Assembly (NCBI GenBank): GCA_016839785.1
Contig: JAEOTQ010000194.1
Span: 1 to 34,571 of the forward strand
Origin: Candidatus Hodarchaeota archaeon
GTDB lineage: Archaea; Asgardarchaeota; Heimdallarchaeia; Hodarchaeales; Hodarchaeaceae
Length of the DNA: 34,571 nt
Direction: 5' to 3'
Both the position numbers and the translations under genes were made by a program. Shown here in pieces: positions 17,587 through 28,856 of the stretch. The notes under the pieces are model-generated. The model saw only the letters and a program-made list of their open reading frames with translations, searched no databases and had not been told where the DNA came from. Numbering within the stretch: the stretch's first letter is position 1; each line of letters starts with the position of its first letter.

Positions 17587-17595
17587 GTGAGAAAA

Positions 17596-18282
17596 ATGAA
17601 CGAACATCAAGAATCTCAAGAAAACAAAGAGGAAGAAGAATCTCAGGAAACTGAAGAAGTAGAAAAAACTGAAGAAGCAGAAAAAACTGAAGAAGCAGAA
17701 AAAACTGTAGAAGCTGAAGTGACTGAAACTCCCTCTGAAACATCCTCTGAAAACCCACAGGGCACTGAAGAAACCCTTAATGTGATGAAAATTAGTGAAT
17801 TAGCTCCATTCGAAAGAAAGCTTCAAGTTATATTCTGTGTTGTCGAAAAAGGCGAATCTCGGACAATTGTCAGTAAGAAAACTAATGAAGAGCATAATCT
17901 TGCCGATTTAAAGGTAGGAGACGAAACGGGAACAATTACATTGACACTCTGGGACGAAACAATTGACCGTGTTACTGAAGGCGGAACCTTTATCCTAAAA
18001 AATGGATATGTAAATGTCTTTCAAAGCCAAATGCGTCTAGCTCTCGGTAAATGGGGTTCAATTGAGGACACAGAAGACGTTATCGCACTTGATGATGTTA
18101 ACACAGAAAATGATCGATCAAAAGAACAACATGAAGATCGAAGACGGCGACCACGATCATTTGATCGTGGTGGTGGTGGTCAACGTAGATCCTCATATGG
18201 CGGTGGAAAATCCTATCGAGGTCGCGATAACTCAGGTTATCGGGGTCGATCAGATCATTCAGAACAACAAGATCGTTGGTAG
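17596..18282 (+). CDS. Single-OB-fold ssDNA-binding protein with acidic N-terminus and RGG-like tail
   Basis: About 228 residues in three parts. Residues 1-62 are Glu/Thr-rich with an exact 6-residue repeat (EEAEKT). Residues about 63-162 form an OB fold: MKISELAPFERKLQVIFCVVEKGE, LKVGDETGTITLTLWDE, GGTFILKNGYVNVFQSQMRLAL and a final strand. This matches the single-OB RPA/SOSS-B-type SSBs of archaea. The last 50 residues are Arg/Gly-rich (RRRRPRS, RGGGGQRRSSYGGG, YRGRGR-like), i.e. an RGG tail. Unlike crenarchaeal SSB, the acidic region is at the N-terminus, not the C-terminus. I prefer the ATG at 17596; an in-frame GTG lies at 17587. Probably binds ssDNA in replication or repair; RNA binding is possible because of the RGG tail. 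Confidence 0.85.
   Translation: MNEHQESQENKEEEESQETEEVEKTEEAEKTEEAEKTVEAEVTETPSETSSENPQGTEETLNVMKISELAPFERKLQVIFCVVEKGESRTIVSKKTNEEHNLADLKVGDETGTITLTLWDETIDRVTEGGTFILKNGYVNVFQSQMRLALGKWGSIEDTEDVIALDDVNTENDRSKEQHEDRRRRPRSFDRGGGGQRRSSYGGGKSYRGRDNSGYRGRSDHSEQQDRW
17653..17724 (+). repeat. 18-bp tandem repeat inside the SSB gene (4 units)
   Basis: Units at 17653, 17671, 17689 and 17707. Units 2 and 3 are identical (GAAGAAGCAGAAAAAACT), unit 1 differs by one base and unit 4 is diverged. Each unit encodes EE(A/V)EKT-like residues of the acidic N-terminus. The near-identity suggests recent slippage. Confidence 0.85.
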
Positions 18283-22689: not shown

Positions 22690-23601
22690 TCACCCATCAA
22701 ATATAGGCGCTTTTTCCTTATTTTGCTCAGAAAGCGGATGTCCTAAATCATAAGATTTACGTAAATGCGCTAAACTGACATGTGTGTACAACTGTGTGGT
22801 TGAAAGGGAAGCATGACCCAATAATTCTTGTATAACTCGGATATCAACGGAATTAGCAAGTAAATGTGTAGCAAAGGCATGTCTAAGTGTATGAGGGGTT
22901 AATTTTTTATCCTGTAGATTAGCTTGTTCTCGATATTTTTTTACTAATCGCTGGATTGATCGTGAAGTTAAACGATCTCCCGATCGATTCAAAATTAGTG
23001 CGGATGTTGATGAATCCTGACGACGGTTTTCCAGGTATTCTTCTATGATTGGTATGAGTACATCAGGGAGAGGAATTAATCTATCCTTATTTCCTTTCCC
23101 TCCAATAATTCTTAACATTCGATTGTCAAGGTCTACACAATCTACATTCAGATTACTGAGTTCAGATACTCGCATTCCAGTACCATAAAGAAGAAAGAGT
23201 ATTGTTCGATCTCTGATATTATCAGGCGTTCTTAGAAGTTGTAGTGTTTCCTCTACAGAGATAGTTTTTGGTAAGCTTTTTGGTATTTTCGGAGATTCTA
23301 TGTTCTCTGCTGGATTGGTTGAGATAAAAGCTTCTTTCTTGAGAAATTTGTAGAATGACTTGAGTGAGCAAATCTTTCGATGAAGACTCCGAGGTGAGTA
23401 TTTTTTCTCTCGCTTTAAGTGTAAGAAGAAACGACGTAAGTCAGTTGTCGTTCTCATCTCAATAGATCGTTCACTATTAAAGGTATTAAACATTTGAAGG
23501 TCATAAGAATATTCTCGTATTGTTTTTGGAGAGTATCCTTTCTCTACTTCTAACCAAACTAGGTAATCATCAATTAGCATAATTTTGAAATTTGACGACA
23601 T
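22690..23601 (-). CDS. xerA: Tyrosine recombinase XerA (chromosome dimer resolution)
   Basis: 303 residues. Site-specific recombinase acting at dif sites to resolve chromosome dimers. N-terminal SAM-like core-binding domain (about 8-92), then the catalytic domain with R144 (TGMRVSEL), K169 (IGGKGNKDR), H237 and R240 (TPHTLRHAFATHLL), H263 (LLGHASLSTTQ) and the nucleophile Y272 (LYTHVS). The full catalytic set is present. Length and lack of an att site, excisionase or phage gene nearby favour a housekeeping XerA/XerC rather than an integrase. Translation may begin at Met1 or Met8 (IMLIDDYL). A coiled-coil/winged-helix protein gene lies 53 bp upstream on the same strand. Confidence 0.92.
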   Translation of the reverse strand: MSSNFKIMLIDDYLVWLEVEKGYSPKTIREYSYDLQMFNTFNSERSIEMRTTTDLRRFFLHLKREKKYSPRSLHRKICSLKSFYKFLKKEAFISTNPAENIESPKIPKSLPKTISVEETLQLLRTPDNIRDRTILFLLYGTGMRVSELSNLNVDCVDLDNRMLRIIGGKGNKDRLIPLPDVLIPIIEEYLENRRQDSSTSALILNRSGDRLTSRSIQRLVKKYREQANLQDKKLTPHTLRHAFATHLLANSVDIRVIQELLGHASLSTTQLYTHVSLAHLRKSYDLGHPLSEQNKEKAPIFDG

Positions 23602-25866: not shown

Positions 25867-26880
25867 ATGAGCGACTATGAGTTAGAAATTGATCAAATTG
25901 TTCAGAAGATTCGTGAAAATAGTTATAATTCAGTCCTAATTCAATTCCCAGAGGGTATGCTAGATAAACCCTTGAAAACGATTAAAGAAACACTTTCAAA
26001 AGAAAACATAAAAGTGTATGTTGCAGGAGATCCTAGCTATGGCGTCTGTGATCTGGCAGTTGACTTAGCCAAGAAACTCAAGTGTGAATTATTGATCCAT
26101 TTCGGCCATTCGGAATTTGGTTTTCAAAATCAGGTAAACTCTGCTTTATCAGAGCCAATTGATGTAATCTTGGTACCAGCATATTATCTTTCGCCACAAG
26201 AGTTAGATTATACCCCAATTATCAGAGAAATTAAGAAAAGGAACTGGAAAACTGTTGGTTTGGCGGCAACAATCCAGCACATTAAAAATTTGGACAAATT
26301 AGAAGAAATTCTTGTGAATAAGAATATTACAGTTAATAGATATAATACCGGTCAAGTTCTAGGATGTCATGTTACCACCCTCCATAAAAGTAATAATGTC
26401 TCTGATGGATTTATTAGCGTCCATGCCGGTTATTTTCATACCCATGGGTTTTTACTAAATACTAATAAACCATTAATCCAGTTCGATCCATATAGTGGGA
26501 GTATTACATGCTACGAGGAGCTAGATCACGATAAAGTGGTTCAAAAGCGTTTTGCATTACTTACTCAGGCAAAAAAAGCGAAATACTGGGGTATCCTTGG
26601 AAGTTCAAAACTTGGTCAGCTTAATTTGAAAATGATTTCTAATGTGCAATCATTATTAGCGGAACGTGAGTTACCCAGCATAACCGTTGTAGCTGAAAAC
26701 ATAAACCCACATGTATTAGCAAACTTCAGTTATATTGATGCATGGGTTGTAACCGCCTGTCCTCGCCTTGCTATTGATGATAAAATTCGTTTTAACAAGC
26801 CTGTTGTTACATTTAGAGAATTTCTCTGTATATTTGATCAAGTGAAATGGGAAAATTTACTAGAACAGGGATTCTTTTAG
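25867..26880 (+). CDS. dph2: Diphthamide biosynthesis enzyme Dph2 (archaeal type)
   Basis: 337 residues. Non-canonical radical-SAM enzyme that transfers the 3-amino-3-carboxypropyl group of SAM to a His of elongation factor 2, the first step of diphthamide synthesis. Three cysteines that bind the [4Fe-4S] cluster are seen: C61 in YGVCDLA, C167 in LGCHVTT and C298 in VTACPRLAIDD. Their spacing is close to that of Pyrococcus Dph2 (59, 163, 287). Other landmarks: HFGHSEFG near 78-85 and DPYSGSIT near 207-214. Homodimer in archaea. A hairpin with T-run follows the gene. Regulation is not visible. Confidence 0.93.
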   Translation: MSDYELEIDQIVQKIRENSYNSVLIQFPEGMLDKPLKTIKETLSKENIKVYVAGDPSYGVCDLAVDLAKKLKCELLIHFGHSEFGFQNQVNSALSEPIDVILVPAYYLSPQELDYTPIIREIKKRNWKTVGLAATIQHIKNLDKLEEILVNKNITVNRYNTGQVLGCHVTTLHKSNNVSDGFISVHAGYFHTHGFLLNTNKPLIQFDPYSGSITCYEELDHDKVVQKRFALLTQAKKAKYWGILGSSKLGQLNLKMISNVQSLLAERELPSITVVAENINPHVLANFSYIDAWVVTACPRLAIDDKIRFNKPVVTFREFLCIFDQVKWENLLEQGFF

Positions 26881-26979: not shown

Positions 26980-27963
26980 ATGTGTAGGTATACTAGGAGA
27001 CCATTTGATTTGAAGGAAACACCAATTAGCGATCTATCCCCCCTCAGATCTAAGGCGAGAAATTCGTCAGAATTGGGTTCCAGATCACTCCGAGGATCAG
27101 ATATATTGGTTATTCTTTCTGATGAGGGAGGTTTACCTGTTTATACCAGATTTGTACAGGTTAATGATCTTGGTGACATAACTTACAAAGATACTCCTTC
27201 TACACGCGCTAGTAACGAAAATATTGTTTTGATTTCAGGTCTACTTGAAGCTATCATCCAACTTAAAGACATCATTAAACCTACACTAATAGATTTAACT
27301 GGTAAGCCTAATTCACCAATTTATGTAGATTATGCTAAGGCAGAAAGCGGGATTAGTTTGCTTTCATTGGCCACATCTCCAGAGTTTCAACAACTTCCAG
27401 GGCATTTATTAAGTCAGTATGTACCTTTTCAGAGCGATATCAAGGTCTCAAGTGCGGATTCATGGGAAAAAAACTTTGAGGAAGCGATAGAAAGTCCCTT
27501 AGGGGAAGATGCTGCAATTTATAAAAATATCCTTGGTAAAATTAAGATTGATTTAGCTGATTTCGTGTCTTTTATACTCGTATACGATTATGAAGGGAAT
27601 TACTTATTTTCGACTGCAAAACAACAAGAATTACAAGGAGTTTCAGACCCATTGCTTAATTCAATCTCGCAGTATATCAAACGAGAATATTTAATGCACA
27701 GATATCGGGAAAATCTTACATTAATTGGCGCTAAACGACTACATGATTCAGTCATCTGGCATTTCAAATGTTTCGATAAAATCTTCGTATTTTTCACTTA
27801 TATTATACCCGATTTATACAATTTCGATATTTTAAAGACCGAAATGATCACATTCATAACTAATAACTTGGAGAAGTTCATAAAAGCTACCAAATTATAT
27901 TCCTCGCCTCCTGGTTCAGTTTCTAGTAATATTAAAACAACTCGGTTTACATTTCTATCTTAG
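26980..27963 (+). CDS. Two-domain longin-like protein (Mon1-like first domain)
   Basis: 327 residues, soluble. After a 40-residue polar N-terminus come two alpha/beta domains of similar layout. Domain 1 (about 42-140) starts DILVILSDEGGLPVYTRF and has a helix VLISGLLEAIIQLKDI. Domain 2 (about 190-300) has FVSFILVYDYEGNYLFST, a helix, then DSVIWHFKCFDKIFVFFTYI and a long C-terminal helix. The first strand-turn 'hhhhLSxxGxPVYxR' followed by a helix at about 45 residues is the opening of the first longin domain of eukaryotic Mon1/fuzzy/HPS1 proteins. These act with longin partners as GEFs of Rab GTPases. The assignment is by pattern only. It lies between dph2 and the PARP-finger gene on the same strand. 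Confidence 0.55.
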   Translation: MCRYTRRPFDLKETPISDLSPLRSKARNSSELGSRSLRGSDILVILSDEGGLPVYTRFVQVNDLGDITYKDTPSTRASNENIVLISGLLEAIIQLKDIIKPTLIDLTGKPNSPIYVDYAKAESGISLLSLATSPEFQQLPGHLLSQYVPFQSDIKVSSADSWEKNFEEAIESPLGEDAAIYKNILGKIKIDLADFVSFILVYDYEGNYLFSTAKQQELQGVSDPLLNSISQYIKREYLMHRYRENLTLIGAKRLHDSVIWHFKCFDKIFVFFTYIIPDLYNFDILKTEMITFITNNLEKFIKATKLYSSPPGSVSSNIKTTRFTFLS

Positions 27964-28061: not shown

Positions 28062-28856
28062 ATGTCAAACGATAGATCAGATAATCCAAAAGTTGAATTT
28101 GCCAAATCGGGAAGATCCAAATGCCGTGGATGTCAAGAAATAATCACCAAGGCTACACCTCGAATTGGAGTTCCCTCACCATTCACTACACCAAAGGGAG
28201 AGGTAATAACCTCTTATCGCTACTACCATGTAGGATGTACACCTCGTTACATTATTCAAGATATAATTTCATTCTTAACAAAGGAAAACCTTGAAGATTC
28301 AGATTTACAGAAGGATACACTCGCTAGCTTGAATCAAATACTGAAAAAAGAACCTTTAAAAGAAACAAGATCTGAGCAACAGACCGAAAAATCGTTTCTT
28401 GAATATGCAAAAAGCTCTCGTGGTAAATGTAGGGAATGTGAGGAAAAGATTGAAAAGGATACCGTGCGAGTGGCTGAGCCAACGATAGTTGAATTAGATG
28501 ACGGGAGAAAATTCACTTCAAAAAAATATTTTCATGTTAATTGTCATTTAACCAATGTAAATGACCCCAAATCAGAATTAACGATCTTAATTGAAGTTTC
28601 ACTTGAGAAGAAGACAATTCAAGAAGAACAAGCCCTACAAATCAAACAAAAATATGCTGATTTAGATGAGAAAGCAATGGGGGTCGACGAAATTCTTGCA
28701 GGAATCGGGGGTGAAGCAATCAATTTCTCTGTTTTACGTTCCATTGCTAAAGAAAAGGGTGTACAATTCGAATTAATCGAAAAAGCAATAGATAGGGGAT
28801 TAATGCGGGGTGAATACTTTAAACCTACATCAGATACTGTACAAAAATTGGTTTAG
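28062..28856 (+). CDS. Tandem PARP-type zinc-finger protein with C-terminal winged-helix-like region
   Basis: 264 residues. Two copies of a PARP-type zinc finger: finger 1 has C21-x2-C24 ... H56-x2-C59 (VEFAKSGRSKCRGC then YYHVGC), finger 2 has C123-x2-C126 ... H158-x2-C161 (EYAKSSRGKCREC then YFHVNC). Both start with the 'E-(F/Y)-A-K-S-x-R-x-x-C' signature of the family, and both have 31 residues between the second Cys and the His. Human PARP1 has its fingers at C21/C24/H53/C56 and C125/C128/H159/C162, almost the same spacing. In eukaryotes these fingers bind DNA nicks and breaks. No ADP-ribosyltransferase domain follows; instead a helical linker and a possible winged helix (about 205-264). 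Probably a DNA-binding or DNA-damage protein. Confidence 0.82.
   Translation: MSNDRSDNPKVEFAKSGRSKCRGCQEIITKATPRIGVPSPFTTPKGEVITSYRYYHVGCTPRYIIQDIISFLTKENLEDSDLQKDTLASLNQILKKEPLKETRSEQQTEKSFLEYAKSSRGKCRECEEKIEKDTVRVAEPTIVELDDGRKFTSKKYFHVNCHLTNVNDPKSELTILIEVSLEKKTIQEEQALQIKQKYADLDEKAMGVDEILAGIGGEAINFSVLRSIAKEKGVQFELIEKAIDRGLMRGEYFKPTSDTVQKLV

What the first reader, a model, noticed from the sequence alone, without database searches (positions are those of the whole stretch)
28062..28856. Archaeal protein with tandem PARP-type zinc fingers spaced as in human PARP1
Two copies of the E-(F/Y)-A-K-S-x-R-x-x-C-x2-C ... H-x2-C motif lie at residues 21-59 and 123-161. PARP1 has its ligands at C21/C24/H53/C56 and C125/C128/H159/C162. 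The family is known mostly from eukaryotes (PARP1, DNA ligase III, aprataxin-like factors). Here it stands without an ADP-ribosyltransferase or ligase domain and ends in a winged-helix-like region. It could be an Asgard nick or break sensor and an ancestor-like form of the eukaryotic module.
Basis: partly seen in the sequence, partly recalled or inferred. Interest (0 to 1): 0.75.

Follow-up and report, generated by a model that had tools for sequence, protein, structure and literature searches.

The report
PARP-like DNA-break sensor without PARP enzyme
An Asgard archaeon encodes a small protein with two PARP1-type zinc fingers and a predicted winged-helix tail but no PARP enzyme; it is likely a DNA-break sensor that would work beside single-strand DNA-binding proteins, which would mean that this kind of break sensing can exist without ADP-ribose signalling.

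Summary

Small tandem-finger proteins also occur in many bacteria. In finger trees the eukaryotic fingers are one clade (100/98); the PARP1-like spacing is therefore probably not inherited from this gene, though a formal test does not exclude it.

New here: a same-genus orthologue has an SSB-like OB fold between its fingers, 56% identical to the OB protein (SOSS-B1-like) encoded 9.8 kb away in this window. Best reading: a non-enzymatic strand-break sensor tied to ssDNA-binding proteins.

The parts
28062..28856 (+). zf-PARP / zf-PARP / winged-helix protein, 264 aa
   Evidence: ORF and translation; PF00645 E 2.3e-24; AF2 model mean pLDDT 84.5, pTM 0.50
28077..28337 (+). finger 1 (residues 6-92): C21 C24 H56 C59, R18, R34, F41
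28338..28382 (+). linker (residues 93-107), partly of low model confidence; in the same-genus orthologue of genome G048 an SSB-like OB fold sits between the fingers
   Evidence: pLDDT under 50 at residues 100-108; PF21473 E 2.1e-13 in the G048 protein
28383..28655 (+). finger 2 (residues 108-198): C123 C126 H158 C161, R120, R136, L145
28656..28853 (+). predicted winged-helix tail (residues 199-264)
17587..18282 (+). SSB-like OB protein with acidic N-terminus and an R/G-rich tail, 231 aa; separate gene whose close relative is fused between the fingers in G048
   Evidence: PF21473 E 3.7e-16; 56% identity over 113 aa to the G048 fusion; SOSS complex subunit B1 E 4e-9; best such hit in the genome
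26980..27963 (+). conserved upstream neighbour, 327 aa, no Pfam hit
   Evidence: same strand, 98 bp before the finger gene; directly next to it in 7 of 9 same-genus loci fetched
25867..26880 (+). diphthamide synthesis gene (dph2-like), next upstream
   Evidence: PF01866 E 8.3e-69; same order in those 7 loci

Best explanation
This 264-residue protein carries two zf-PARP fingers and a predicted winged-helix tail, and is likely a non-enzymatic sensor that would grip DNA nicks, gaps or ends with its fingers and recruit a repair or replication partner with its tail. Shown by calls: the fingers and their ligands, the absence of a transferase or ligase domain, conservation of the arginines that PARP1 inserts into the minor groove (R18, R122 there; R18, R120 here), an aromatic residue in hairpin 1 (F/Y41) and a leucine in hairpin 2 (L145), and an SSB-like OB fold between the fingers of one orthologue. 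Inferred: that each finger holds one zinc and caps an exposed base-pair end as PARP1 F1 and F2 do; that F41 and L145 play the parts of PARP1 F44 and L151; that the protein works at junctions of double- and single-stranded DNA beside the SSB-like OB protein encoded nearby; and that the winged helix binds a partner protein, as the Rpa2 winged helix does. ADP-ribose signalling is not part of it as far as the genome shows.
For: Two fingers over the Pfam cut-off. PARP1 Zn1-Zn2 is the best PDB match by sequence (E 4.1e-11), and Zn1/Zn2 by structure (human PARP1 on nicked DNA is the first Foldseek hit, E 8.1e-10). Conservation in 28 type-A rows, gaps not counted: R18 26/26, R34 27/27, R120 28/28, R136 28/28, all eight ligands invariant, F/Y41 27/27, L145 27/28. 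In PARP1, Arg18 and Arg122 insert into the minor groove and Phe44 stacks on the 5' base (PMC4678113, passages); Leu151 meets the 3' end (PMC12108792, passages). D45, needed to activate PARP1 but not for DNA binding (PMC8150716, passages), is not generally kept if position 45 corresponds: K in 18, D in 7, S in 2 of 27 rows. The orthologue in genome G048 has the OB between the fingers and keeps the same tail; that OB is 56% identical over 113 residues to the window's own OB protein. Another Asgard family has finger-linker-finger: the profile of three linkers finds Replication factor A (E 3.5e-5) and SSB (E 1.8e-4). PARP catalytic domain over the cut-off in 0 of 227 Asgard genomes.
Against: No measurement of zinc or DNA binding. 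Hairpin 1 is three residues longer than in PARP1, so the F41 = F44 match is a guess, and model coordinates were not inspected. pTM 0.50: the placing of the fingers to each other is not predicted. The OB fusion was seen in one genome of the genus only, and that genome has three other SSB-like OB places as well. The OB gene 9-12 kb away lies in a block that is conserved as a whole, so nearness adds little. A profile comparison of the two inter-finger OB types found no likeness (probability 0.8%). The winged helix matches MCM and ZBP1 tails as well as Rpa2's, and its profile finds RPA32 only at E 0.7. The adjoining genes (dph2, GDSL hydrolase) do not speak of repair.
Confidence: 0.55

Rival explanations
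1. A structural DNA-binding or regulatory protein: the zf-PARP fingers and the winged helix bind intact or bent double-stranded DNA, as a chromatin or transcription factor, and breaks are not the target.
For: Winged helices often bind duplex DNA (recalled); the tail ties with ZBP1 and MCM winged helices. A single finger (54.8 bits) with a tail that has a sub-threshold winged-helix match also exists in the same order. PARP1 itself is also described as a chromatin architectural protein (PMC6135609, abstract in search listing).
Against: The residues kept are those PARP1 uses at break ends (papers). An SSB-like OB fold between fingers points to single-stranded DNA.
Confidence: 0.25
2. An archaeal ancestor of the eukaryotic PARP1 Zn1-Zn2 tandem: the two fingers are orthologous to Zn1 and Zn2 one for one, and eukaryotes later fused them to a transferase.
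For: Near-identical spacing; phmmer aligns the whole tandem. Hodarchaeales are reported as the sister group of eukaryotes (PMC10307638, passages), and four same-genus contigs match by length records named Hodarchaeota (two) and Heimdallarchaeota (two). Formal tests do not exclude it: p-AU 0.050 for first fingers, 0.093 for second.
Against: Eukaryotic fingers are one clade apart from Asgard first and second fingers, 100/96 and 100/98; log-likelihood costs 47 and 34. Bacteria hold many tandem-finger proteins, and eukaryotic fingers fell beside bacterial first fingers in the first tree (99/95).
Confidence: 0.12
3. The fingers are a protein-protein or RNA-binding module that no longer meets DNA breaks.
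For: No binding data; zf-PARP stands in very varied proteins, such as a 972-aa Myxococcales protein with DUF4132 and a sub-threshold HEAT match.
Against: Arginines and hairpin residues conserved down to 37% identity; OB partner.
Confidence: 0.08

Closest known systems
Human PARP1 zinc fingers Zn1-Zn2 (F1-F2)
   Different: No transferase domain; PARP1's Zn3, WGR and helical domains (recalled) are not seen either; hairpin 1 longer by three; fingers not shown to be one-to-one orthologues; a predicted winged helix follows
DNA ligase III zinc finger
   Same: One zf-PARP finger; finger 2 here matches it at E 1.9e-5
   Different: No ligase domain here; two fingers
Small bacterial tandem zf-PARP proteins (Myxococcota, Planctomycetota and others; one bears the NCBI name 'PARP-type zinc finger-containing protein')
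   Same: Two fingers and little else, about 157-216 aa in those read
   Different: Too short for a winged-helix tail like this one (by length; no fold searched); their second fingers form a group apart
Asgard N-domain + single zf-PARP proteins (Thorarchaeota, Heimdallarchaeota)
   Same: zf-PARP without transferase
SOSS-B1 (hSSB1) and Sulfolobus SSB (species recalled)
   Same: The window's OB protein matches them at E 4e-9 and 2.3e-8, and its relative is fused between the fingers in G048
   Different: Neither is known, from recall, to be joined to PARP-type fingers
Rpa2 / RPA32 C-terminal winged helix
   Different: Ties with other winged helices; sequence likeness E 0.7; no OB fold in the window protein

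Membership tests
zf-PARP (PF00645) | Profile score over the curated cut-off | tested here: met
   86.4 bits against 39.3; each finger alone 42.5 and 47.3 bits
zf-PARP (PF00645) | C-x2-C ... H-x2-C zinc ligands | tested here: met
   C21 C24 H56 C59 and C123 C126 H158 C161; invariant in all of 28 rows that cover them
zf-PARP (PF00645) | Fold of a solved zf-PARP finger | tested here: met
zf-PARP (PF00645) | Binds zinc and DNA strand breaks | not testable with these tools
   needs purified protein
PARP enzymes (ADP-ribosyltransferases) | PARP catalytic domain PF00644 | tested here: not met
   absent from the protein; 0 of 227 Asgard genomes over the cut-off, one sub-threshold match in G177
DNA ligase III | ATP-dependent ligase domain | tested here: not met
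   absent from the protein; PF01068 also not found in the 84.5%-complete genome
PARP1 Zn1-Zn2 tandem, as orthologue | Finger 1 groups with Zn1 and finger 2 with Zn2 | tested here: inconclusive
   disfavoured in trees of 94 and 91 fingers, 83 columns, but p-AU 0.050 and 0.093
RPA32/Rpa2 winged helix | Closest to Rpa2 tail in fold and sequence | tested here: inconclusive
SSB-like OB (window 17587-18282) | PF21473 over the curated cut-off | tested here: met
   59.5 bits against 24

The most novel reading that the evidence does not exclude
A PARP-free strand-break sensing system in the archaeal lineage next to eukaryotes: PARP1-type fingers, an SSB/SOSS-B1-type OB fold and an RPA-type winged helix act as one unit, encoded apart in most species and fused in one, so that break recognition by zf-PARP fingers came first, tied to single-strand DNA binding, and ADP-ribosylation was bolted on later in eukaryotes.
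Probability: 0.3. Interest if true: 0.82.

Novelty: new variant of a known kind. Interest (0 to 1): 0.62.

Why it matters
PARP1 is the main eukaryotic nick sensor, and a 2014 survey found no PARP proteins in archaea (PMC4245714, passages). Here PARP1's break-reading fingers are found in 57 of 227 Asgard genomes, none of which has its catalytic domain over the cut-off, and in many bacteria. That makes a question testable: did break recognition by these fingers arise without ADP-ribose signalling, and from which prokaryotes did eukaryotes take it? The OB-finger fusion gives a concrete partner to test. The protein is small and should be easy to make.

Tried and rejected
Chance motif: rejected by the profile scores. 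Contamination by eukaryotic DNA: rejected, since 10 of 12 same-genus genomes hold the gene, next to the same two upstream genes in 7 of 9 same-genus loci fetched (of the other two, L083 has one gene between and L082 lacks both). Hidden transferase elsewhere in the genome: not found over the cut-off. One-to-one descent of Zn1 and Zn2 from these fingers: disfavoured, not excluded. Close Rpa2 kinship of the winged helix: not shown. WGR domain: no match listed in the window's genus, but present in 20 of 227 Asgard genomes. Functional hints from neighbours dph2 and GDSL hydrolase: none found.

Results against my reading: profile comparison of the two inter-finger OB types, probability 0.8% (0.9%). 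The comparison is circular, because alignment A8 holds the G048 protein whose tail is also in A4; it is not used. Profile A5 mixes both OB types and is not used. A typing slip: the L087 linker piece typed, and the L082 piece, differ from their sources in the first residues (found). The linker alignment was redone from DNA references (where the first codon of L088 was read as M; without that codon) and searched again, with nearly the same E-values as. L087's piece alone had found Replication factor A only at E 0.17.

Tree rows: 59 proteins gave 94 fingers by a motif; the motif missed the second fingers of L087, L088, L073 and L074, which are not in the trees. Three long-branch rows were dropped; those three plus P0029 (two fingers) and BacB_L046. 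I had labelled P0029 as Asgard without any organism name; it fell among bacteria. So the p-AU 0.00065 for 'eukaryotes + all Asgard' is not used; without these rows p is 0.29. The eukaryotes + bacterial F1 test did not finish and was run on a quick tree. P0161 (three fingers) is taken as eukaryotic by inspection only. Eukaryotic sampling was thin: 9 fingers.

Fold search did not give a secure fold for the N-terminal domain of the second Asgard type; matches other than zf-PARP were weak.

Those on archaeal or bacterial zf-PARP listed three papers in all: PMC4245714 (passages), PMC5540417 (listing only) and PMC11354881 (passages; on ubiquitin). None seen treats zf-PARP proteins of Asgard archaea. 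Eme et al. 2023 (PMC10307638) does not hold the word PARP in its main text; supplements were not read. NCBI already names some relatives 'PARP-type zinc finger-containing protein'.

Full report
What is in the window. The ORF at 28062-28856 (+) encodes 264 residues. Pfam gives zf-PARP twice, E 2.3e-24, 86.4 bits against a cut-off of 39.3; no other family passes its cut-off. In a whole-genome search the two fingers are the only zf-PARP places listed and both pass the cut-off; the same search rings in none of 14 control genomes. The ligands are C21/C24/H56/C59 and C123/C126/H158/C161. By sequence the best solved relative is human PARP1 Zn1-Zn2, aligned across both fingers at E 4.1e-11.

Conservation. 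In 28 type-A rows (29 rows of alignment A1 less P0029; the window's own protein included; gaps not counted) all eight ligands are invariant, as are R18 (26/26), R34 (27/27), R120 (28/28) and R136 (28/28); F/Y41 is kept in 27/27 and L145 in 27/28. In PARP1, Arg18 of F1 and Arg122 of F2 insert into the minor groove and Phe44 stacks on the 5' base (PMC4678113, passages); Leu151 lies at the 3' end (PMC12108792, passages). That F41 and L145 are their counterparts is inference, since the hairpins differ in length.

Distribution. zf-PARP is found in 57 of 227 Asgard genomes, 54 over the cut-off: 10 of 12 genomes of the window's genus, 27 others of its class, and 20 genomes of one family (f28) outside the class; names of relatives point to Thorarchaeota for the latter. 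PARP catalytic domain: 0 of 227 over the cut-off, one weak match. A scan of GTDB contigs with a finger alignment gave 52 loci, from Asgard archaea and from Planctomycetota, Myxococcota, Deltaproteobacteria, Eisenbacteria, Bacteroidota and unnamed bacteria. Of 18 proteins taken as bacterial and given to (14 of the bacterial loci and 4 P proteins; one further bacterial locus, L046, is of type B), 15 show two fingers by motif, and the motif missed second fingers in two of the rest. Of 22 bacterial genomes that hold zf-PARP loci, completeness unknown, 2 have a PARP catalytic domain over the cut-off. So in the prokaryotes looked at the fingers mostly stand without ADP-ribosylation.

The OB link. 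The best SSB-like OB hit of the own genome lies in this window, 17587-18282: acidic N-terminus, OB, R/G-rich tail. It matches SOSS complex subunit B1 at E 4e-9 and the SSB of 1o7i (Sulfolobus, recalled) at 2.3e-8, and is 56% identical over 113 residues to the OB fused between the fingers in G048. By the places, nine genus genomes have both genes on one contig. In eight of them (G000, G041, G042, G043, G045, G046, G047, G050) they lie about 9-12 kb apart; the genes between are conserved too, so the fusion is the stronger evidence. The ninth, G048, has the fusion and three further SSB-like OB places, the best-scoring 284 kb away. Of the other three genus genomes, G051's finger contig is only 4.8 kb long and G044 and G049 gave no finger gene.

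Descent. In trees of 94 and 91 single fingers on 83 columns, nine eukaryotic fingers (PARP1 Zn1 and Zn2 of man and a mite, plant Zn1, LIG3, three of one three-finger protein) form one clade, 100/96 and 100/98. Asgard first and second fingers lie elsewhere. p-AU for PARP1 Zn1 with Asgard finger 1 is 0.050, Zn2 with finger 2 0.093, eukaryotes with all type-A fingers 0.136, with type B 0.27; eukaryotes with Asgard 0.29, with bacterial first fingers 0.23. The data do not settle the source; they disfavour the idea that the PARP1-like spacing is inherited from this gene.

Mechanism. My reading: a break sensor without enzyme, whose fingers cap the two ends at a nick or gap as in PARP1, helped by an SSB-like partner on the single strand, with the winged helix as a docking site; in archaeal RPA the winged helix binds primase and PolD (PMC11686378, abstract and passages). 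Every step from DNA binding onward is inferred.

Place of the genome. Four same-genus contigs match by length records named Candidatus Hodarchaeota (two) and Heimdallarchaeota (two), the window has a dph gene, and dph genes are reported in all sampled Hodarchaeales, the proposed sister of eukaryotes (PMC10307638, passages). The order is thus likely Hodarchaeales; it was not tested by phylogeny.

Searches were made to hold the report against its sources; they mended the OB-linker result (now) and the count of genomes with both genes on one contig.

Noticed in passing
window 17587-18282: SSB-like OB protein with acidic N-terminus and R/G-rich tail; by phmmer it scores better against 1wjj (a plant protein, recalled; 6.8e-10) and SOSS complex subunit B1 (4e-9) than against the SSB of 1o7i (2.3e-8).
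   Followed up: partly
L018:1105-1731, L004:1030-1725 and others: Second Asgard family: about 140-150 residues of unassigned fold plus one C-terminal zf-PARP finger that matches PARP1 Zn1 better than the window's fingers do.
   Followed up: partly
L046:5509-6237: A contig labelled Planctomycetota carries a protein of the Asgard N-domain + finger type, perhaps by horizontal transfer.
   Followed up: no
L108; places listed: 17 genomes of family f28 (names of relatives point to Thorarchaeota) hold WGR domains, mostly in open frames of about 70-120 aa; 8 of these also hold zf-PARP, and no PARP catalytic domain passes the cut-off in 227 Asgard genomes.
   Followed up: partly
L085:864-1829, L087:9114-10064, L088:9137-10066: Finger, OB-like linker, finger proteins of another family of the class, without a tail like the window's.
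   Followed up: partly
L090:9693-11534: 613-aa protein with one N-terminal zf-PARP finger (35.3 bits, under the cut-off of 39.3; 39.8 with its neighbours) and a long part without Pfam hits.
   Followed up: no
L070:2080-4998: 972-aa Myxococcales protein with DUF4132, a sub-threshold HEAT match and a C-terminal zf-PARP finger.
   Followed up: no
window 26980-27963: Conserved 327-aa protein without Pfam hit, directly next to the finger gene on the same strand in 7 of 9 same-genus loci fetched.
   Followed up: no
window 22690-23601: Phage-integrase-family recombinase gene inside the conserved gene block.
   Followed up: no
whole genome G000: No ATP-dependent DNA ligase (PF01068) found in the 84.5%-complete genome, though 6 of 14 control genomes ring.
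   Followed up: no
P0161: A 326-aa protein of three zf-PARP fingers and little else, 234 member sequences, probably from a eukaryotic microbe.
   Followed up: no
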